A DNA stretch of 29,532 nt from a virus (IMGVR_UViG_3300015202_000038:1-29532); one strand, 5' to 3'; shown: positions 5,162 to 27,285, counted from the first letter of the stretch. Notes: generated from the letters alone by a model not told the origin. Numbers and translations: made by a program.

Positions 5162-5467
5162 TTAGTCTATCGCGATGCCGAGATTGCGCAGGGCTTCAAG
5201 CGTGAAGGTATGCTTCATAATACTCGCGCAAGTATGCCTCAAGCTAAACATCACCGCTAATTGAATAAGCTGTTGATCTTCCGGGTCGGTGCTTTCGGCT
5301 TCGATCTTGGCGTCGAGCCCTCGAATGAAGGCGAGTGCGATGCTCAAAGCGGAGTCAGTCAAGCGTTCAGCAGCTTCGGGCGTTACACCGGAAGACTTTA
5401 TTCGCTTAACCATCGAGATTACGGCGTCTTCATTGACGGCGTAATCAAATAGCTTGATCATAGCCAT
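5162..5467 (-). CDS. hypothetical helical protein (101 aa)
   Basis: Start at ATG 5467 (MAMIKLFDYAVNED), 1 nt beyond the stop of the upstream gene. Longer in-frame versions would overlap that gene entirely. It is an all-alpha protein with several amphipathic helices (AVISMVKRIKSSG, EAAERLTDSALSIALAFIRG) and an acidic linker ESTDPEDQQ. No transmembrane segment or known motif. Second gene in the operon from promoter 5626-5677. Confidence 0.65.
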   Translation of the reverse strand: MAMIKLFDYAVNEDAVISMVKRIKSSGVTPEAAERLTDSALSIALAFIRGLDAKIEAESTDPEDQQLIQLAVMFSLRHTCASIMKHTFTLEALRNLGIAID

Positions 5468-5468
5468 A

Positions 5469-5615
5469 TCAGTAACGCCGACCTTGCGGGTCAACATAGC
5501 CAAACATGCGGCGTTGATCGCGTTGCTCCTGTTCGCGGCGGCGAGACAGGTCGGTACGGCCCGAGTGAGATGGGGCGCCGAACAAGTCGCGATAAAGCTT
5601 TGAGTCATCGTTCAT
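5469..5615 (-). CDS. hypothetical small basic protein (48 aa)
   Basis: Start at the ATG encoding MNDDSKLYRDLFGAP, directly behind the GGAGAT ribosome site and the leader hairpin. The longer in-frame version would read through the promoter. The C-terminal half is strongly Arg-rich (SRRREQEQRDQRR), followed by MFGYVDPQGRRY. It could bind nucleic acid, but no family is recognised. Short coding length leaves some doubt; the full promoter-hairpin-RBS layout favours it. Confidence 0.6.
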   Translation of the reverse strand: MNDDSKLYRDLFGAPSHSGRTDLSRRREQEQRDQRRMFGYVDPQGRRY

Positions 5616-5625
5616 TTCATATCTC

Positions 5626-5677
5626 CATCGCGTTATTGCGATGAATTGACAATGCAACGATGGCGTCTGATATGCAA
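5626..5677 (-). promoter_or_regulatory. promoter with 5' stem-loop for genes 5615-5162
   Basis: -35 TTGCAT (5672-5677), 17 bp containing GCCATCGT, weak -10 CATTGT (5649-5654), perfect stem-loop CATCGC-AATAAC-GCGATG (5626-5643), then GGAGAT. A separate perfect 7-bp dyad GTTCGAT-CA-ATCGAAC lies upstream at 5716-5731. Confidence 0.6.
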
Positions 5678-5737
5678 CCCTTGCGTTCTGCGACATACCA
5701 GCGCGTGCATTGTGCGTTCGATCAATCGAACAACGCG

Positions 5738-5827
5738 TCAATTATCATCCTTTAGGTCCTTGGGCGTGTCCTCAGGCGTTGAAACGAATGCGCGCGATAC
5801 AATGCACACAAAACGATGGCACATCAT
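5738..5827 (-). CDS. possible small protein (29 aa)
   Basis: The ATG overlaps the stop of gene 5824-6036 in an ATGA junction, and the product ends with a soluble charged tail (STPEDTPKDLKDDN). There is no independent ribosome site, so it would depend on coupling. The same DNA contains a partial copy of the GCCATC and hairpin module, so it may be regulatory rather than coding. Confidence 0.35.
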   Translation of the reverse strand: MMCHRFVCIVSRAFVSTPEDTPKDLKDDN

Positions 5828-6036
5828 CCTTGGGCGCCGTGTGTGATGCGGCTCATCGTTGCGTACGCCTCTTCGAGTGTTTCTATAGCTATTTTCATAG
5901 CCTTCAACGTACCTTTCTCACTTCGGGCTTGGTTATTGACTAGGACGCGTTGCGAAGCTTCCCACTCGAGGGCGGTTATTTGAACAGCTAGGCAAGCTCG
6001 CAATACTCGCTCAGTGGGTGGCGATAGGGCCATCAT
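5824..6036 (-). CDS. hypothetical helical protein (70 aa)
   Basis: ATG 6036 is 6 nt after GGAG. The start lies inside the 3' end of gene 6011-6235 (26-nt overlap). The product is almost entirely helical, with Glu, Ala and Leu repeats (LRACLAVQITALEWEASQRV and LKAMKIAIETLEEAYATM), consistent with a small helical bundle or coiled-coil dimer. No known family. It is the fourth gene of the operon starting at 7069. Confidence 0.65.
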   Translation of the reverse strand: MMALSPPTERVLRACLAVQITALEWEASQRVLVNNQARSEKGTLKAMKIAIETLEEAYATMSRITHGAQG

Positions 6037-15033: not shown

Positions 15034-15510
15034 ATGATCGTTATTGAGGGTATGGACAATTCAGGTAAGTCTACTTTGGCCATTGCGATGGGCCTAAAGC
15101 TTAACTTGGAAGTCATCGAAAGTGGGGGACCTCCTTTATCCGATCAAGAGATAAATGAACGGGTAGATAAGTACAGTGTTATGGGAGAGTACTTATTCGT
15201 CAGGCATCCCGTAATCTCCAATTCAATCTATGGTCAAGTACGCCTTGAGGGTGATCTTATTACCGCTGACCGCCGAGCTCGATTTTATGCCGCTAAGCCT
15301 ATCCTTATATATTGTGACGCTGGCGCGAGAGGTTTAAGTGCTCATGTCGTGAAGGCTCACGATACTGAAAAGCATCTTGAAGATATTACCAACAACTACA
15401 ACAAGCTTTTATATCTGTACCGTCAATGGGCGGCAGAACATGCTCGGTTTATTTATCGCATTGGCGATGATGTAGATAATTTAATCGAGCTGGTCGACTA
15501 CACCACATAA
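15034..15510 (+). CDS. deoxynucleoside monophosphate (thymidylate-type) kinase
   Basis: 158 residues; ATG 15034 is preceded by AAGAGGGG. The P-loop IEGMDNSGKST (residues 4-14) has the E-G-x-D-x-x-G-K-S-T form of thymidylate and other dNMP kinases. VRHPVISNSIYGQV (about 59-72) corresponds to the DR-type substrate loop, ending in a Y-G. ADRRARFYAAKPILIYCDA leads into the usual strand with a D-A after it. It would phosphorylate dNMPs, possibly a modified dCMP, to diphosphates. It is the first gene of the plus-strand nucleotide and replication operon. Confidence 0.8.
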   Translation: MIVIEGMDNSGKSTLAIAMGLKLNLEVIESGGPPLSDQEINERVDKYSVMGEYLFVRHPVISNSIYGQVRLEGDLITADRRARFYAAKPILIYCDAGARGLSAHVVKAHDTEKHLEDITNNYNKLLYLYRQWAAEHARFIYRIGDDVDNLIELVDYTT

Positions 15511-15533
15511 CTATAGATAAGGGGGAAAATAAT

Positions 15534-16394
15534 ATGATACCGACTCACCGGCATGCCGATGGCGGCCTTTATCGGCTTGCGGCTAAAAACATCGCAGGCA
15601 AAGATGATGGTGACTGGCAAGATGGGGTGTTGTACCAATGCTGCACCGATGGCAAAATGAGGTGGACAACTAAGCGGCGCTTCGAAGATAGGTTCAAGTA
15701 TATTGACCCGAAAGCCACTCAGCATGAACGCTTTAATTTGTTTGAAGACGAAGATATTATTGGAACGATAGTGTTTTGTGTCACTGAAGTAGATGACATA
15801 CGACACTTGCTCATAAAGGGTAAAGCTTCGCCCGGCAAGAACGATGAAGTCTTTTTGCAAGTCAAGCGAGTGCTTGAGTCTCAAGCGGAAATTATGACGC
15901 AGGGACTTCATCGGAGTAATGCCCCGCTGATAGATTTTTTAGGGGATGTTACCACTTTTCATAGAAAGTTTGCGCAATTCCCCAACAGCTCGGACAGCCA
16001 CTTACTACCCGAAGACTTATTCGACTTTCGTGCAAAGTTTCATCTAGAAGAGTCACAAGAGTATAAAAACTCCGGCGAGGCTATCTACGCTATTCTTGAA
16101 ACTGGTCAAGGGCCGACAACCGCGGAAGAACGCCGCCATATCGTGAAGCACCTGGCTGACCAGCTCGATGCTGTCTGCGATGCCTTGTTTGTGATATTCG
16201 GCACAGTCGACATTCAGTTTGATCGAGCTACGCTGTATTCAGCATGGCGCCGCGTGATGAGCAAGAATATGCAAAAGGTCCGCGCGTATGCCGAAGGCGA
16301 TGATCGCAGCAAGCGTGATAGCAAGTTCGACATTGTGAAGCCCGCGGGCTGGACGCCACCCGATCACACTGACCTGATCAAGTATGGAGCATAG
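15534..16394 (+). CDS. DUF1653-like/MazG-like nucleotide pyrophosphohydrolase fusion
   Basis: 286 residues, AAGGGGG ahead of the ATG. The N-terminal 60 residues (DGGLYRLAAKN...WTTKRRFEDRFKYI) look like a DUF1653-type small beta domain. The C-terminal part is an all-alpha MazG/PRA-PH-like domain: DFLGDVTTFHRKF (134-146), metal-binding LEESQEY (171-177; E172, E173, E176) and LADQLDAVCDALFV (207-220; D212, D216). A W-R-R-V-M-x-K-N-M-x-K segment follows. Such enzymes hydrolyse (d)NTPs to (d)NMP plus pyrophosphate. In this operon it may remove dCTP and supply dCMP, as T4 dCTPase does; that assignment is inference. Confidence 0.78.
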   Translation: MIPTHRHADGGLYRLAAKNIAGKDDGDWQDGVLYQCCTDGKMRWTTKRRFEDRFKYIDPKATQHERFNLFEDEDIIGTIVFCVTEVDDIRHLLIKGKASPGKNDEVFLQVKRVLESQAEIMTQGLHRSNAPLIDFLGDVTTFHRKFAQFPNSSDSHLLPEDLFDFRAKFHLEESQEYKNSGEAIYAILETGQGPTTAEERRHIVKHLADQLDAVCDALFVIFGTVDIQFDRATLYSAWRRVMSKNMQKVRAYAEGDDRSKRDSKFDIVKPAGWTPPDHTDLIKYGA

Positions 16395-16397
16395 GTC

Positions 16398-17234
16398 ATG
16401 AAAGTCGAATGGTTAGCGCATGTTATGAGGCTTAGCCTTCGGCCGGATGACTTTTACTCCGGCTGCCGAAAAATCCACCAAGGGCTTCATTTCAAGTTCA
16501 TGGATTTGTGGGATGCTGAGGATCCTCTGGTACTTGAGGACTGCGGATATACGTCGGCTAAAATGTCTCACCTTCGTCGGCTATACCTTCACGAAGAGTC
16601 TCGTGACATGGCTAAGATGTTGTGGGACCTTCGACGTACTAAAGACTCTTACGGGTCAGTGTGTTTTACCACTTTTAACCACTTGCTCAAGAACGATATT
16701 ACTAAAAAATCGAAGCGGGCAAGCGTTATGGGTCCTTGCCTTCAGAGCGTTGCAATCACCCAAATAAAGGGCGGTAACAAGAGTGCTCGCTATAGCATTG
16801 ATGTTTTCTATCGAACCACAGAGCTGCTCAAGAAGTTTCCTGCCGACCTTATCTTTATTCGAGATGTTTTGCTTGAAGGATTTAACTTCGAAGGCATGGA
16901 ATTTATGGGCATGACTTGTCACTTTGCAAATGTTACAAGTCATCCACAGTATTATGTCACTGCTCTTGCTCATTGGGATGATTGGGAAGAACGGCTGGAG
17001 CGTATTAAATCAAAAGACAAATACTTTTTCGAGTGGATTGTGAAATGGACAGCTCGATACCTGTGCGACGAGCATTACCGCGGGATCGCAAAGTTTGCAC
17101 AGGCTCAGCGCGTGAAAGATGACGCAGACGCTCGAATAAAAGGTAAAAAAAGAAAAGCGCTGGCCACTTACCTCCGTGAAAACCACCCCGGGCATCGGAA
17201 TGCTTATGTTGAGCCCGAAGGAGACGACGACTGA
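16398..17234 (+). CDS. divergent thymidylate-synthase-family protein (first paralogue)
   Basis: 278 residues, GGAG 8 nt before the ATG. It lacks clear similarity over its first 100 residues, but then shows the thymidylate synthase core: MGPCLQSVAITQI (C114 as candidate nucleophile) and the strand-loop YRTTELLKKFPADLIFIRD (about 138-156). TCHFANVTSHPQY (about 173-185) matches the H-x-Y-x-x-H region. Counted from the conserved Arg139, the position of the dUMP-selecting Asn is Asp150. The C-terminal 50 residues are basic then acidic. Taken with the next gene it suggests a dCMP-acting enzyme or an inactive partner subunit. Alignment was by eye. Confidence 0.65.
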   Translation: MKVEWLAHVMRLSLRPDDFYSGCRKIHQGLHFKFMDLWDAEDPLVLEDCGYTSAKMSHLRRLYLHEESRDMAKMLWDLRRTKDSYGSVCFTTFNHLLKNDITKKSKRASVMGPCLQSVAITQIKGGNKSARYSIDVFYRTTELLKKFPADLIFIRDVLLEGFNFEGMEFMGMTCHFANVTSHPQYYVTALAHWDDWEERLERIKSKDKYFFEWIVKWTARYLCDEHYRGIAKFAQAQRVKDDADARIKGKKRKALATYLRENHPGHRNAYVEPEGDDD

Positions 17235-17317
17235 TGGAGTTAATTTTGAACAGCGATAGCGGTTCTTCTGCTCCTCAACATGCCACACACTTTCACCCAA
17301 TGCCGACGCCTTCGTGA
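17234..17317 (+). CDS. small hypothetical peptide (27 aa)
   Basis: ATG overlaps the stop of the upstream gene (TGATG) and has an excellent AAGGAG ribosome site 7 nt before it. The peptide (MELILNSDSGSSAPQHATHF and seven more) is rich in Ser, Pro and His and ends 9 nt before the next ATG. Short length is the main doubt. Confidence 0.5.
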   Translation: MELILNSDSGSSAPQHATHFHPMPTPS

Positions 17318-17326
17318 GGATGACGA

Positions 17327-18199
17327 ATGAAACCCTATATCTACACGAGCTTCAACGATGCAATCACCCAAGCGTCACACCACTTGCAATACCGCAGCAA
17401 AGTGGTTCACAGCGAGCGTTGGCAAGGTGCGGAGATTGCAAACAAGCCTGAGATGGCTATGCACGAGGTAACGCATTGCTCGTTTGCTGTGGACCTTCAT
17501 GGTCTTTTCAAGGGTCACAAGTTACCTCAGGTTGAAACGCTTGCCAAAGACATTCAGCCTAACCTTCCTTGGGCGGATGACCATTTCCTCGAGCGAGTCA
17601 GCGGTGCACCCATGAACCCGGGTAAAGAATGGGCTAATTGGCCTTACGGCAAATCGGCTGCGACATTTCTTGATAATAACGGTCAATTCAACCATAACTA
17701 TATGGAAAGATATTGGCCAAAAGACGCGGGGCCTCATGTTGCTGCAACAGAAGATGCACTACATTGGGAGATGGAGTTTCACAAGCACGACTGCATGCTG
17801 GGGCCGAAACAAGCTAACCGCGGTATTCGATACCAGTACGGGGATTTGAACGATGTTCTTGACCTGCTGAGGAAAGACCCGCTCACTCGCCAAGCCTATC
17901 TACCGATTTGGTTTCCCGAGGATACAGGCGGTGGAGCTAAGCGAGCGCCTTGCACGATCGGGTACCACTTCACGATGCGCGAAGATAGGCTTGACCTCAG
18001 TTACCATATTCGGTCGTGCGACTTTGTTCGCCACTTCCGCGATGACCTCTACTTGACTGCGCGACTGCAGCTGTGGGTTATCGAACAGCTCCAGGAGCGT
18101 GATAGTCGATGGAACACTGTCCAGGCCGGTAAGTTTATCATGCAGATCGGCTCGCTTCATTGTTTTCGCAATGACTACCAAATGCTGTATGGGAATTGA
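17327..18199 (+). CDS. thymidylate synthase family, predicted dCMP hydroxymethylase or methylase
   Basis: 290 residues, GAGG 7 nt before ATG. The core family motifs are evident: DPLTRQAYLPIW (184-195, for D-P-x-S-R-R), RAPCTIGYHF (206-215; catalytic C209), YHIRSCDFVRHFRDDLY (226-242) and AGKFIMQIGSLHCF (267-280, for H-x-Y). In thymidylate synthase the position 11 residues after the Arg of R-S-C-D is an Asn that selects dUMP. Here that position is Asp240, as in T4 dCMP hydroxymethylase. The second Arg of the phosphate-binding R-R pair is Gln. I predict action on dCMP (hydroxymethylation or methylation). It lies between the paralogue and the dCMP deaminase. Confidence 0.82.
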   Translation: MKPYIYTSFNDAITQASHHLQYRSKVVHSERWQGAEIANKPEMAMHEVTHCSFAVDLHGLFKGHKLPQVETLAKDIQPNLPWADDHFLERVSGAPMNPGKEWANWPYGKSAATFLDNNGQFNHNYMERYWPKDAGPHVAATEDALHWEMEFHKHDCMLGPKQANRGIRYQYGDLNDVLDLLRKDPLTRQAYLPIWFPEDTGGGAKRAPCTIGYHFTMREDRLDLSYHIRSCDFVRHFRDDLYLTARLQLWVIEQLQERDSRWNTVQAGKFIMQIGSLHCFRNDYQMLYGN

Positions 18200-18395
18200 T
18201 GTGGCTACCCATCGGACAAAGTTTAATTTGCAAGATAGAGTGCATATCGACCAAGACAAGTCTCTAGTGGGGTACATCACGGGCATCACCCTTCGCGGGA
18301 ATGATTTTGCCAACTATGAGGTAAGCTATTTTCATAATGGTGGTTCTTATTCACCCGTTATCGAGGAATGGCGACTCGGGAAAGTGGAGAATTGA
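18189..18395 (+). CDS. small beta-rich hypothetical protein (68 aa)
   Basis: It overlaps the end of the preceding gene by 11 nt. ATG 18189 is used here, but GTG 18201 with GGGAA ahead is equally possible. The sequence is beta-like: FNLQDRVHIDQDKSLVGYIT, then YEVSYFHNGGSYSPVIEEWRL. The pattern hydrophobic-Q/G-D-x-V followed by G-x-I-T-x-I and a terminal E-E-W-R-L resembles small SH3/KOW-like phage proteins of unknown role. It ends 1 nt before the deaminase start codon. Confidence 0.65.
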   Translation: MGIDVATHRTKFNLQDRVHIDQDKSLVGYITGITLRGNDFANYEVSYFHNGGSYSPVIEEWRLGKVEN

Positions 18396-18396
18396 T

Positions 18397-18882
18397 ATGG
18401 GCAGAATTAGCCGACAACAGCTTTTTATGGGGATAGCAAGACTCGCAGCAATGCGGGCCACCTGCTTTCGACTAAATGTCGGCGCAGTAATTGTTGAGGA
18501 CAACAACCCTTTGGCCGTGGGGTATAATGGTCAACCCCCTGGTGCACCTCATTGCACGGGTAATGATTGCGTAGGAAGGGTACCGGGTAGGTGCAACACG
18601 CTTCATGCTGAAGCAAACGCGATCAGAAAAGCCGAAGAGCGCTTGGCCGACCCCTTACGGGTACCTGGGTCTGTGGATCTGTATTGTACCCACAGTCCTT
18701 GCCGTCAATGCGCTGGGCTCATCAGCGAAAGCCCTTTGAATATCAGCCGTATCTTTTTTGAAGTTGCTTACCGAGACACCAGCCACCTCAGCATGTTTAA
18801 GCAAACTCGGGAAGTTTATGTTGTCACCGCTGCCGGTTATGTGGTAGATTATTTTACAAATCGCGTGGTGGAGTTGCCTTGA
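18397..18882 (+). CDS. dCMP deaminase (zinc deoxycytidylate deaminase)
   Basis: 161 residues. ATG 18397 is chosen because GGAG lies 7 nt upstream; a longer frame starts inside the previous gene. It has the zinc and catalytic signature HAEANAI (H70, E72) and SPCRQCAGLI (C102, C105), plus the upstream C-x-x-NVGAVIV strand. ARLAAMRATCFRLNVGA and VGYNGQPPGAPHC correspond to the usual dCMP deaminase start and substrate loop. It converts dCMP to dUMP for dTTP synthesis. Its stop overlaps the polymerase start (TGATG). Cytosine supply would thus be drained by this enzyme, the pyrophosphohydrolase and the dCMP-type synthases. Confidence 0.88.
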   Translation: MGRISRQQLFMGIARLAAMRATCFRLNVGAVIVEDNNPLAVGYNGQPPGAPHCTGNDCVGRVPGRCNTLHAEANAIRKAEERLADPLRVPGSVDLYCTHSPCRQCAGLISESPLNISRIFFEVAYRDTSHLSMFKQTREVYVVTAAGYVVDYFTNRVVELP

Positions 18883-21398
18883 TGTTTCCTGAGCTGATGA
18901 TCGTAGGTGAGTCACCCTCCCTTAACCCGCGTGCTAAAGCTATACTCTACGATGCGCTGCTGGATAATGATATTGGCGAAGATAGCTTCAGCTGGGTGAA
19001 TGTTTTAAGGGATGCACCCCCCGACGGTAAAAATGTCACTAAAACTATGATCAAGGGTTCTCGTCAGCGGGTGCTTGACCGTATTGAAAAACGAGACCCG
19101 AGATTTGTATTGTTACTTGGCAACAGCGCATGTCAAGCTGTACTTGATCAAGCCGGTATACGCAAACTACGGGGAAAGCCCCTCGAGCGTGATGGCCGGA
19201 TTTACGTCCCTATCTATCACCCTCACCAAGCTTTGCATGATGATAAGTGGGTGTCCGTAATAACGGGCGACATTCGGCGGATGAAAGAGTGTATGAACTT
19301 TGGGGGTATTCCCGAAGAAAAAGGGATAGAGTACCACGTCGTTGATACTTGGGACAAAGTAGAAGCGATGCTCAAGGATTTACACGGTAAGATTGCAATC
19401 GATCTTGAAACTTCCCGCTTGTACCCTTTCACCACTGTGTGGGACAAGGCGGTTGAAGCGGGCACAGCAACCAAAGCAATGCTTGATGCCCACAAAGCCA
19501 CGCATGGCTCAAACAATATCCCTAAGGTTGTCGCGATGCAGTTTGGCTGCAACAAACGACAGTGGGTAGTACCCATGGAAACAGCGGGCATTTGGGATCA
19601 TGAGACGCTTGTCAAGATTGTTAAACTAGTTACGCTTAAGATCAAAAATGGTTGCTTCACGATTTTTCACAACGGCAAGTTTGATGCTTTGTGGATGCGC
19701 GTTCGGTTCGGCGTCAAGTGGCCCGTTCATTTCGACACAATGCTTGCCCACTATCTCCTTGATGAAAACGACATGCACGGGCTTAAGTACTTGGCGCAAA
19801 AACTGATGGGTGCTTACGACTGGGATATTGAAGGCAAAGAAAAAACAGACTGGTCGATGGAGAATGCGAAGTACGCGGCTCACGATGTTTATTACACCCG
19901 TTTGCTATACTTTATTTTTCGCGACCAGTTATTCGAAGAGGGTGATGTTAAAAAAGTTTTCAAGCACATCTTGATGCCCTGCGTGGCAATGTTTGTAGAC
20001 GCCGAGTTTACCGGCGTTCATATTGACCTTGACCACATGGATGAGGCGGAGAAAGTACTTCGTGATCAGGTTGCCGATGCGATGACTAATTTAAGTGAGT
20101 GGGGTAGCAAAGCTAAGTTGGTTGATAAGAAAACGGGTGTAATCAACTGGGCAAGCTCAGATCAGCTAGGCGACTTGTTGTTTAACGTATTGAAGATCAA
20201 GCCCATCGAAAAAACAAAGAAGGGCAAGAACAGTGTCAGCGAAAGCGTACTACTCCGAATTGACCATCCCATGGTCGGCGACCTTATCAAATATCGAGCT
20301 GCTCAGAAACAGCTCTCATCTTTCATTGACGGCTGGCGCCCATATCTCGATCTTGATGGACGGCTGCATCCTGTCTTCAAGCTTCATGGTACGGTCACAG
20401 GACGCTTATCTTGCGAGCATCCCAACCTCCAGCAAGTCCCCCGTGATCCTCGCATTAGAAGTCTTATTACAGCTCCAAACGGATGGACGCTTATTGAGAT
20501 GGATTTGTCGCAGGTCGAGTTGCGTATCGCGGCTGAACTGGCTAACGAGTACCACCTCTTATCAGTCTTTAAGTCGGGAGGTGATCCTCACTGGCAAACT
20601 GCAATTCGCGAGATTGAGCGCGGTGCGGGCTATAAAAAGGAAGTATTGAAGACTGCTCGAGTGCTTGCTGAAAAAGAGCGTCTAAATCACGTAGATATGA
20701 ATTACAGCGAAGCTATCGAGTATATCCTCAACAAAGGCAATGAGGCCTGCGAGGAGGTTATGATAATGTGGAAGGAGACACGTAAAAAAGCAAAGGCCAT
20801 TAACTTTGGCTATCTCTACGGAATGTGGTGGAAAAAGTTTAAGATATATGCTCGCGACAACTATGGTGTGGACGTTAATGATGGTGAAGCTGAAGCCTCA
20901 CGTGAGGCTTTTTTCGAGCTATATCCTGCGTTCTTGGCGTGGCATAACAAGCAACGCCGCTTCGCTCAATTGCACGGTTATGTGAAGTCACTTACTGGAC
21001 GCAAGCGTCGTTTGCCTGCGGCGTCCTTAGGCCGCGATTGCCCTGAACGCCGTGAAGCACAACGTCAAGCGATCAACAGCCCCGTACAGTCATACGCAAA
21101 CGACCACAACCTGATGGCGGCACTTGATATGGCGAAAGAGTTTAATCGAAACTGGTTCAGGATTGTGGGAACCGTGCATGACGCTATCTTGATGTGGGTA
21201 CGCGATGACAAGGTTGAGCATGTCTATAATCGGGGGTTGGAAATTATGTCATCCCCCAGCCTATTGACTACGTTTGAAATATCTCTCAGTGTACCGATTG
21301 AGGCAGATGCGAAGATCGGTCCTTGGAGTAAAGGAAAGAACCTTAAAAAATGGTTAGCGGAAAACAACAATCAAAGCTTGCAACAAAAAGTGGCGTAG
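18882..21398 (+). CDS. family A DNA polymerase with N-terminal UDG-like domain
   Basis: 838 residues; ATG 18882 has GGAG 8 nt upstream. Residues 1-140 resemble a family 4/5 uracil-DNA glycosylase fold (MIVGESPSLNP, then VLLLGNSACQAVL and YVPIYHPHQAL), without an obvious FeS cysteine set, so it is probably non-catalytic. The proofreading domain shows Exo I IDLETS (D174, E176), Exo II FHNGKFD (D268) and Exo III YAAHD (D335). Polymerase motifs: A MDLSQVELR (D541), B RKKAKAINFGYLYG (R634, K638, F642, Y646), C VGTVHDAI (H766, D767). Motif C has Ala where HDE is usual, and A and B are about 45 residues further apart than in E. coli Pol I. Replicative polymerase of the phage. Confidence 0.93.
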   Translation: MFPELMIVGESPSLNPRAKAILYDALLDNDIGEDSFSWVNVLRDAPPDGKNVTKTMIKGSRQRVLDRIEKRDPRFVLLLGNSACQAVLDQAGIRKLRGKPLERDGRIYVPIYHPHQALHDDKWVSVITGDIRRMKECMNFGGIPEEKGIEYHVVDTWDKVEAMLKDLHGKIAIDLETSRLYPFTTVWDKAVEAGTATKAMLDAHKATHGSNNIPKVVAMQFGCNKRQWVVPMETAGIWDHETLVKIVKLVTLKIKNGCFTIFHNGKFDALWMRVRFGVKWPVHFDTMLAHYLLDENDMHGLKYLAQKLMGAYDWDIEGKEKTDWSMENAKYAAHDVYYTRLLYFIFRDQLFEEGDVKKVFKHILMPCVAMFVDAEFTGVHIDLDHMDEAEKVLRDQVADAMTNLSEWGSKAKLVDKKTGVINWASSDQLGDLLFNVLKIKPIEKTKKGKNSVSESVLLRIDHPMVGDLIKYRAAQKQLSSFIDGWRPYLDLDGRLHPVFKLHGTVTGRLSCEHPNLQQVPRDPRIRSLITAPNGWTLIEMDLSQVELRIAAELANEYHLLSVFKSGGDPHWQTAIREIERGAGYKKEVLKTARVLAEKERLNHVDMNYSEAIEYILNKGNEACEEVMIMWKETRKKAKAINFGYLYGMWWKKFKIYARDNYGVDVNDGEAEASREAFFELYPAFLAWHNKQRRFAQLHGYVKSLTGRKRRLPAASLGRDCPERREAQRQAINSPVQSYANDHNLMAALDMAKEFNRNWFRIVGTVHDAILMWVRDDKVEHVYNRGLEIMSSPSLLTTFEISLSVPIEADAKIGPWSKGKNLKKWLAENNNQSLQQKVA

Positions 21399-26895: not shown

Positions 26896-27285
26896 ATGAT
26901 GGCTCTAGATAATCTTGAAGATCAAGTGGAGCTTCTTCGCCAGCAATTAGCCGAGCTGACAGGTTCTGATGCAGAGCTAGGTATGCTCATGTCTTTACGC
27001 CACGGCATCACGCTACAACAAGCCACCATACTTCATATACTTGTAAGACGATCACCCGCGGTGGTATCGCGGCAATCTTTGCACATGCTTTTCTACGGTG
27101 ACCTTGAAGATGGTGGCCCTGAGCTTAGCATTTTCGCCGTGCAGATATGCCGACTCCGAAGAATACTATTAAGAGTCGGCGCAAGGGGCAAGATCGAAAC
27201 TAGGTGGGGCATGGGCTACCTGGCAAACCAAGAGCTTGTCCGGTGGGTTAAAGAAAGATATACCCGATTAAATAAAGGAGATTGA
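26896..27285 (+). CDS. stand-alone OmpR/PhoB-type winged-helix regulator
   Basis: 129 residues (ATG ATG start after GGGGG). After an N-terminal coiled-coil-like segment (EDQVELLRQQLAEL) the protein follows the Trans_reg_C pattern. It has LRHGITLQQATILHILVRRSPAVVS (leading strands and helix 1), then SLHMLFYGD, AVQICRLRRILLRVG (recognition helix with C-R-L-R-R) and the wing IETRWGMGYLA. There is no receiver domain, so it is not a phosphorelay response regulator. It may form dimers through the coiled coil and control late or lysis genes. First gene of the operon with the spanins. Confidence 0.8.
   Translation: MMALDNLEDQVELLRQQLAELTGSDAELGMLMSLRHGITLQQATILHILVRRSPAVVSRQSLHMLFYGDLEDGGPELSIFAVQICRLRRILLRVGARGKIETRWGMGYLANQELVRWVKERYTRLNKGD

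What the first reader, a model, noticed from the sequence alone, without database searches (positions are those of the whole stretch)
15034..18882. Candidate cytosine-modification pathway assembled from non-T4 parts
One operon encodes, in order, a dNMP kinase, a MazG-like pyrophosphohydrolase, two thymidylate-synthase-family proteins and a dCMP deaminase, ending at the DNA polymerase. These are the same activities T4 uses to exclude dCTP and make 5-hydroxymethyl-dCTP (gp1 kinase, dCTPase, dCMP hydroxymethylase, dCMP deaminase). In both synthase homologues the position counted 11 residues after the conserved Arg is Asp (Asp240 and Asp150) instead of the dUMP-selecting Asn. That change is known to shift the family to dCMP. 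Sequence positions are observed; base modification is inferred.
Basis: partly seen in the sequence, partly recalled or inferred. Interest (0 to 1): 0.8.

Follow-up and report, generated by a model that had tools for sequence, protein, structure and literature searches.

The report
Two-synthase phage cytosine-modification module
This phage carries a widely shared gene set that probably makes a chemically altered cytosine nucleotide for its DNA, using one recognisable thymidylate-synthase-like enzyme plus a second, previously unnamed relative that almost always sits beside it; it matters because many phages already in laboratories carry the same pair and could be tested directly.

Summary
At 15034-18882 lie, in order, a kinase, a MazG-like pyrophosphohydrolase, a second TS-fold protein (B), a TS-family protein (A) and a dCMP deaminase, running into a family A polymerase. 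A passes the Pfam TS cut-off; its C209/R229/D240 align without gaps to T4 gp42 C148/R168/D179. B matches no Pfam family, but its AlphaFold model (pLDDT 88) matches only TS-family structures at E<=1e-3, and its C114/R139/D150 align with the same catalytic positions of A. D240 holds in 72/73 A relatives, D150 in 63/64 B relatives. The module is conserved in phages of many hosts.

Asp points to dCMP, but it also occurs in the RB69 5-hydroxylase and in a TS from the genus of the 5-methylcytosine phage Xp12, so it does not reveal the C5 group. A keeps the folate-contact Asp that three 5-hydroxylase-type proteins lack, has no C-terminal tail, and rarely travels with DHFR: these favour hydroxymethylation, by inference. 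No modified base was shown. Cytosine-modified viral contigs with TS, pyrophosphohydrolase and dCMP deaminase are known (MetaGPA); the paired, unnamed B family is the new part.

The parts
15034..15510 (+). P-loop dNMP kinase (same PHROG family, 761, as the kinase near the RB69 5-hydroxy-dCMP synthase); proposed 5-modified-dCMP kinase
   Evidence: no Pfam or PDB sequence hit
15534..16394 (+). MazG-like nucleotide pyrophosphohydrolase; conserved half from about residue 130; proposed dCTP-removing enzyme (specificity inferred)
   Evidence: PHROG 671 E 3.7e-15; weak hit to 3nl9; EExxE and (E/D)xxD conserved in 41 relatives
16398..17234 (+). Protein B: unnamed TS-fold protein with conserved Cys114, Arg139, Glu142, Asp150
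16737..16739 (+). B Cys114 codon (aligned with the TS nucleophile)
   Evidence: 63/63 in relatives
16845..16847 (+). B Asp150 codon (aligned with EcTS Asn177 / T4 Asp179)
   Evidence: 63/64 in relatives; register with A by hhalign
17327..18199 (+). Protein A: TS-family, proposed dCMP C5-modifying enzyme (hydroxymethylase favoured)
17951..17953 (+). A Cys209 codon (EcTS Cys146, T4 Cys148)
18020..18022 (+). A Asp232 codon (EcTS Asp169 pterin contact; Asn in RB69-type 5-hydroxylases)
18044..18046 (+). A Asp240 codon (EcTS Asn177, T4 Asp179)
18337..18882 (+). dCMP deaminase (likely start 18391)
18879..21398 (+). Family A DNA polymerase with an N-terminal uracil-DNA-glycosylase-like domain

Best explanation
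The operon supplies a C5-modified cytosine nucleotide for replicative incorporation. The MazG-like enzyme removes dCTP and returns dCMP. A transfers a folate one-carbon unit to C5 of dCMP, most likely giving 5-hydroxymethyl-dCMP. The kinase phosphorylates the modified dCMP, which host kinases are expected to accept poorly. The deaminase turns leftover dCMP into dUMP for dTMP synthesis (by ThyX in many relatives), and the phage polymerase copies with the modified dCTP. B is a second TS-fold protein made together with A: either a dedicated partner or a second pyrimidine-modifying enzyme. Shown by sequence or structure prediction: the families, the conserved residues, the fold of B and the gene order. 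Inferred: substrate dCMP for A (about 0.75), modified cytosine in the DNA (about 0.6), the hydroxymethyl group in particular (about 0.45), and the role of B (open). The stated confidence is for modified cytosine made by this module.
For: A aligns without gaps to T4 gp42 over Cys, Arg and Asp. Its 26 aligned sequences all keep Tyr94, Arg126, Cys146, Arg166, Asp169, Asp177 and His207 equivalents, with Thr or Ser at 147. Asp177 and a changed position 147 are the two top residue marks of TS in cytosine-modified contigs (PMC8670742). MilA, N229D LcTS and the RB69-type dCMP hydroxylase are among its closest structures. The module is conserved with the polymerase across many phages. ThyX is in 15 of 38 records and no second PF00303 protein was found, so A need not make dTMP there. 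Hydroxymethyl favoured: Asp169 kept, unlike three 5-hydroxylase-type proteins (RSQN); no C-terminal tail, as noted for T4 dCH, while the DoCa6 TS keeps one; DHFR in only 1-2 of 38 records, whereas all eight Pamexvirus phages have it. B: catalytic positions near-invariant, fold TS. B-A gene pairs have overlapping stop/start in 32 of 64 pairs, against 8 of 63 for A-deaminase.
Against: No base analysis of any relative was found. T4's active-site Asp145 is Arg206 in A, so the water-contacting residue of T4 is not conserved. Known hypermodification enzymes are nearly absent (carbamoyltransferase and TAGT 0/38, GT2 2/38). The same gene set in SPO1 serves 5-hydroxymethyl-dUMP. The alignment of A upstream of residue 120 to TS is uncertain, so the Glu58 equivalent was not settled. 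C-containing palindromes remain mildly avoided in the window (O/E 0.81), between lambda/T7 (0.61/0.54) and T4 (0.96).
Confidence: 0.58

Rival explanations
1. A is a dCMP methyltransferase: the phage replaces cytosine by 5-methylcytosine, as Xp12 does, with the same kinase, pyrophosphohydrolase and deaminase support.
For: The TS of DoCa6, a phage of the Xp12 genus, also has Asp at 177 and sits beside a dCMP deaminase. N177D in TS by itself gives a dCMP methylase (literature cited in PMC8670742). No glycosyltransferase of the kinds searched travels with the module, and A keeps a Trp aligned with EcTS Trp83.
Against: A lacks the C-terminal tail that TS needs and that the DoCa6 protein keeps. DHFR, needed to recycle dihydrofolate, is in only 1-2 of 38 records. 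The DoCa6 region read shows no B.
Confidence: 0.17
2. A (or B) is a flavin-dependent dCMP 5-hydroxylase like RB69 AfhB, giving 5-hydroxy-dCMP.
For: AfhB (9iqu/9iqc) has Asp at 177 and gives the highest target TM-scores for A (0.71) and B (0.60) among listed matches. A shares Phe at 209 and a very short C-terminus with it. The kinase belongs to the same PHROG as the RB69 kinase.
Against: Three AfhB-type proteins have Asn at 169 (RSQN); all aligned A have Asp. Arabinosyltransferase and sugar genes of the RB69 type were not seen, though only GT2 and TAGT models were searched.
Confidence: 0.12
3. A and B act on uracil nucleotides (dTMP or 5-hydroxymethyl-dUMP), the deaminase feeding them dUMP, as in SPO1.
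For: Same gene set as SPO1: TS family, deaminase, pyrophosphohydrolase/kinase. Arg126-Gln127 in A matches the SPO1 enzyme. Most records have no ThyX detected.
Against: Asp instead of Asn at 177 in 72/73 A and 63/64 B. E. coli TS and SPO1 dUMP hydroxymethylase both keep Asn. 15 of 38 records carry ThyX.
Confidence: 0.1
4. On the role of B: it is a subunit that forms a heterodimer with A and completes A's active site, rather than an enzyme of its own. (This can hold together with the main explanation.)
For: TS active sites are shared between two subunits (established). B lies next to A in most loci, with coupled translation in half of the pairs. B lacks the Arg pair that TS donates to its neighbour and is not conserved at the ribose-binding His/Tyr positions.
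Against: B keeps Cys, Arg and Asp almost without exception, unusual for a dead subunit. Twelve A-bearing loci show no B, so A can exist without it.
Confidence: 0.3

Closest known systems
T4 dCMP hydroxymethylase gp42 and the T4 dCTP-exclusion pathway
   Same: TS fold, Cys/Arg/Asp aligned without gaps with A; the same set of partner activities
   Different: Remote sequence (25% over 79 residues); Asp145 replaced by Arg; kinase and pyrophosphohydrolase not recognised as T4 types; a second TS-fold gene; no glycosyltransferase found
RB69-type 5-hydroxy-dCMP synthase (AfhB, PDB 9iqc/9iqu)
   Same: Asp177, Phe209, short C-terminus; kinase of the same PHROG encoded nearby
   Different: Asn at the pterin-contact position 169, which is Asp in A and Glu in B; no B annotated beside it in the RB69 region read
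Xp12-genus TS of DoCa6 (5-methylcytosine phage group)
   Same: Asp177 beside a dCMP deaminase in a siphovirus with PolA
   Different: Full-length TS with C-terminal tail, DHFR encoded in the group (PMC9206674), no B seen
MetaGPA cytosine-modified viral contigs (PMC8670742)
   Same: Co-occurrence of TS with Asp177, PRA-PH/MazG-type domain and dCMP deaminase, tied experimentally to modified cytosine
   Different: That study characterised a 5-hydroxymethylcytosine carbamoyltransferase; none of 38 records here has it; no second TS-fold gene was described in the sections read
'Pyrimidine hmase synthase' database entries (UOF77028, XAO54149)
   Same: Automatic annotations of B homologues, already hinting at a TS-like fold
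   Different: No analysis or experiment attached that I could find

Membership tests
Thymidylate synthase superfamily (protein A) | Pfam PF00303 over cut-off; Cys146, Arg166 and His207 equivalents | tested here: met
   30.0 bits against 24.3; residues invariant in 26 A sequences
Thymidylate synthase superfamily (protein B) | Pfam PF00303 match | tested here: not met
   No PF00303 match for any of 13 members
Thymidylate synthase superfamily (protein B) | TS fold with the nucleophilic Cys and Arg in register | tested here: met
   All 50 PDB matches at E<=1e-3 are TS-family; hhalign P 9e-5 with C114/C209 and R139/R229 aligned
dCMP-specific TS branch | Asp instead of Asn at EcTS position 177 | tested here: met
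   A 72/73, B 63/64; alignment to T4 Asp179
T4-type dCMP hydroxymethylase | Polar Asp145 in the active site | tested here: not met
   Arg at this position in all 26 aligned A sequences
T4-type dCMP hydroxymethylase | Makes 5-hydroxymethyl-dCMP | not testable with these tools
   Needs an enzyme assay
RB69-type dCMP 5-hydroxylase | Asn at EcTS position 169 (RSQN motif) | tested here: not met
   Asp in A, Glu in B; RSQN in RB69, Melin and Atu_ph04. Taking the motif as defining is my inference from three sequences
Xp12-type dCMP methylase | C-terminal TS tail and accompanying DHFR | tested here: not met
   A ends shortly after the His207 equivalent; DHFR 1-2 of 38 records. Both are my inferred marks, from DoCa6 and PMC9206674
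DpoZ (2-aminoadenine) systems | DpoZ polymerase over its cut-off | tested here: not met
   90.7 bits against a cut-off of 500
MazG-like pyrophosphohydrolase | EExxE and ExxD-type metal motifs | tested here: met
   Conserved in 41 relatives; the nucleotide removed is not testable here

The most novel reading that the evidence does not exclude
A and B form a two-protein machine of unlike TS-fold subunits, each keeping its own Cys and Asp, that carries out a cytosine C5 chemistry not yet described in phage DNA, with B acting on A's product or sharing its active site.
Probability: 0.15. Interest if true: 0.85.

Novelty: new variant of a known kind. Interest (0 to 1): 0.55.

Why it matters
A conserved, uncharacterised TS-fold family (B) travels with a dCMP-type TS in phages of very different hosts, including laboratory phages such as mycobacteriophage Muddy. 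If it marks modified cytosine, DNA assumed to be ordinary in many isolates is not, which affects restriction, CRISPR, cloning and sequencing of these phages. A single LC-MS run on an available isolate would decide it.

Tried and rejected
Sequence-only links for B (Pfam, NCBIfam, PDB by phmmer and hmmsearch) gave nothing useful; a first profile comparison with 13 B sequences was weak and became clear only with 64.

The genome search with PF00303 missed A in the window itself, although hmmscan finds it, so its negatives are soft.

Restriction-site avoidance was tried as an independent sign of modification: the window and relatives fall between unmodified and modified controls, with SPO1 low as well, so it does not decide.

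A tree of the TS core has branches too long to place A among the known chemistries. The Xp12 genome itself and the 2025 work on 5-hydroxycytosine biosynthesis were not available; DoCa6 was used instead. Papers on Yersinia P744, PMBT14, Serbin and Strzyga report no base analysis in the passages searched. The Strzyga study used EcoRI patterns, but that genome has no EcoRI site, so it says nothing.

Full report
What is there. The window is a 29,532-base IMG/VR virus record. On the + strand lie a P-loop kinase (15034-15510), a MazG-like pyrophosphohydrolase (15534-16394), protein B (16398-17234), protein A (17327-18199), a dCMP deaminase (18337-18882, probable start 18391) and a family A DNA polymerase (18879-21398), then a Cas4-like exonuclease and a Sak4-like annealing protein. 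A primase-helicase lies upstream on the other strand.

Protein A. A scores 30.0 bits against PF00303 (cut-off 24.3). BLASTP with T4 gp42 aligns C209/R229/D240 with C148/R168/D179 without a gap between them. In 26 aligned A sequences the residues equivalent to EcTS Tyr94, Arg126, Cys146, Arg166, Asp169, Asp177 and His207 are invariant. Position 147 is Thr or Ser, 127 is Gln as in SPO1, 143 is Arg, and 209 is mostly Phe. Of 73 distinct A relatives, 72 carry Asp at 177; the exception, a paralogue in L009, has lost the Cys as well and has Asn. The closest solved structures include MilA, the N229D LcTS and the RB69-type dCMP hydroxylase (model pLDDT 79).

Protein B. B has no Pfam TS, NCBIfam or PDB sequence match, and its only PHROG is of unknown function. 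Its AlphaFold model (pLDDT 88, pTM 0.85) matches PDB entries of the TS family only at E<=1e-3, best target TM-score 0.60 with the dCMP hydroxylase 9iqu. A profile of 64 B sequences aligns to A plus reference enzymes with P 9e-5, placing C114, R139 and D150 on C209, R229 and D240. These residues are almost invariant (63/63, 64/64, 63/64), and Glu142 stands where TS has Asp169 (61/64). The partner-donated Arg pair and the ribose-binding His/Tyr of TS are not kept (inference from the alignment). B is therefore TS-fold and probably catalytic or substrate-binding, but not a member of PF00303 as defined.

Distribution. The same gene order occurs in Brevundimonas, Serratia, Pseudomonas and Yersinia phages and in environmental records, and with a diverged B in Mycobacterium phage Muddy. 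Of 45 loci found with B as bait, 44 contain A and the last is cut off after B (a few are the same contigs as in the first search). In L002 the two genes are apart. B and A overlap by 4 or 1 bases in 32 of 64 pairs, against 8 of 63 for A and the deaminase (starts were chosen nearest the upstream stop for every pair, so counts are approximate). Twelve A loci show no B nearby by the iterated profile; eleven of their whole records were also searched, with a less sensitive profile, without a match.

Which chemistry. Asp at 177 means cytosine rather than uracil (PMC8670742, PMC6400193, PMC5175136). It does not say which group is added. RB69 ORF048c, nearly identical to the hydroxylase in 9iqc/9iqu and belonging to the phage group whose enzyme is described as a 5-hydroxy-dCMP synthase (PMC13390438), has Asp. 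So does the TS of DoCa6, a phage of the genus of Xp12, whose DNA carries 5-methylcytosine. Three pointers favour a folate-dependent hydroxymethylase. A keeps Asp169, which is Asn in three 5-hydroxylase-type proteins. A lacks a C-terminal tail, a lack also noted for T4 dCH, while the tail is critical in TS. DHFR is found in only 1-2 of 38 module records, while all eight Pamexvirus phages have it. Against a strict T4-like site, T4 Asp145 is Arg in A. All this is inference.

Context. ThyX is present in 15 of 38 module records and no record shows a second PF00303 protein (this tool is not fully sensitive). Carbamoyltransferase and TAGT are absent, and GT2 is in 2 of 38, so a simple, non-glycosylated base is the easiest expectation. 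The kinase belongs to the PHROG of the kinase encoded near the RB69 hydroxylase. The same set of activities also exists in SPO1 for 5-hydroxymethyl-dUMP, so the gene set alone would not prove cytosine.

Verdict. The general idea, cytosine modification by a TS with Asp177 plus pyrophosphohydrolase and deaminase, is known from MetaGPA. The unnamed B family paired with A is what is new. Base modification remains unproven.

Noticed in passing
window 18879-21398: The DNA polymerase begins with a uracil-DNA-glycosylase-like domain (PF03167, 29.8 bits; family 4 model weakly) that keeps GESP- and HP-type motifs but apparently not the iron-sulphur cysteines.
   Followed up: partly
L009:5310-6005: A third TS-like gene: a paralogue of A directly upstream of A, with Cys replaced by Thr and Asn at the specificity position, apparently inactive. 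B is also detected in this locus by the iterated profile.
   Followed up: partly
L030:4454-5224 and 5227-5982: Two tandem copies of B upstream of A in one phage.
   Followed up: no
Brevundimonas phage Strzyga (L092, L031, L093): The tetramer AATT is absent from the 62-kb genome (about 38 expected per strand), while GTAC, CTAG and CGATCG are also strongly avoided. AATT holds no cytosine, so a cytosine modification could not protect it.
   Followed up: partly
window 15534-15920: The first half of the MazG ORF is not conserved among relatives and looks like a small extra domain.
   Followed up: no
window 26896-27285: A response-regulator-type DNA-binding domain (PF00486) in a phage, near the lysis genes.
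   Followed up: no
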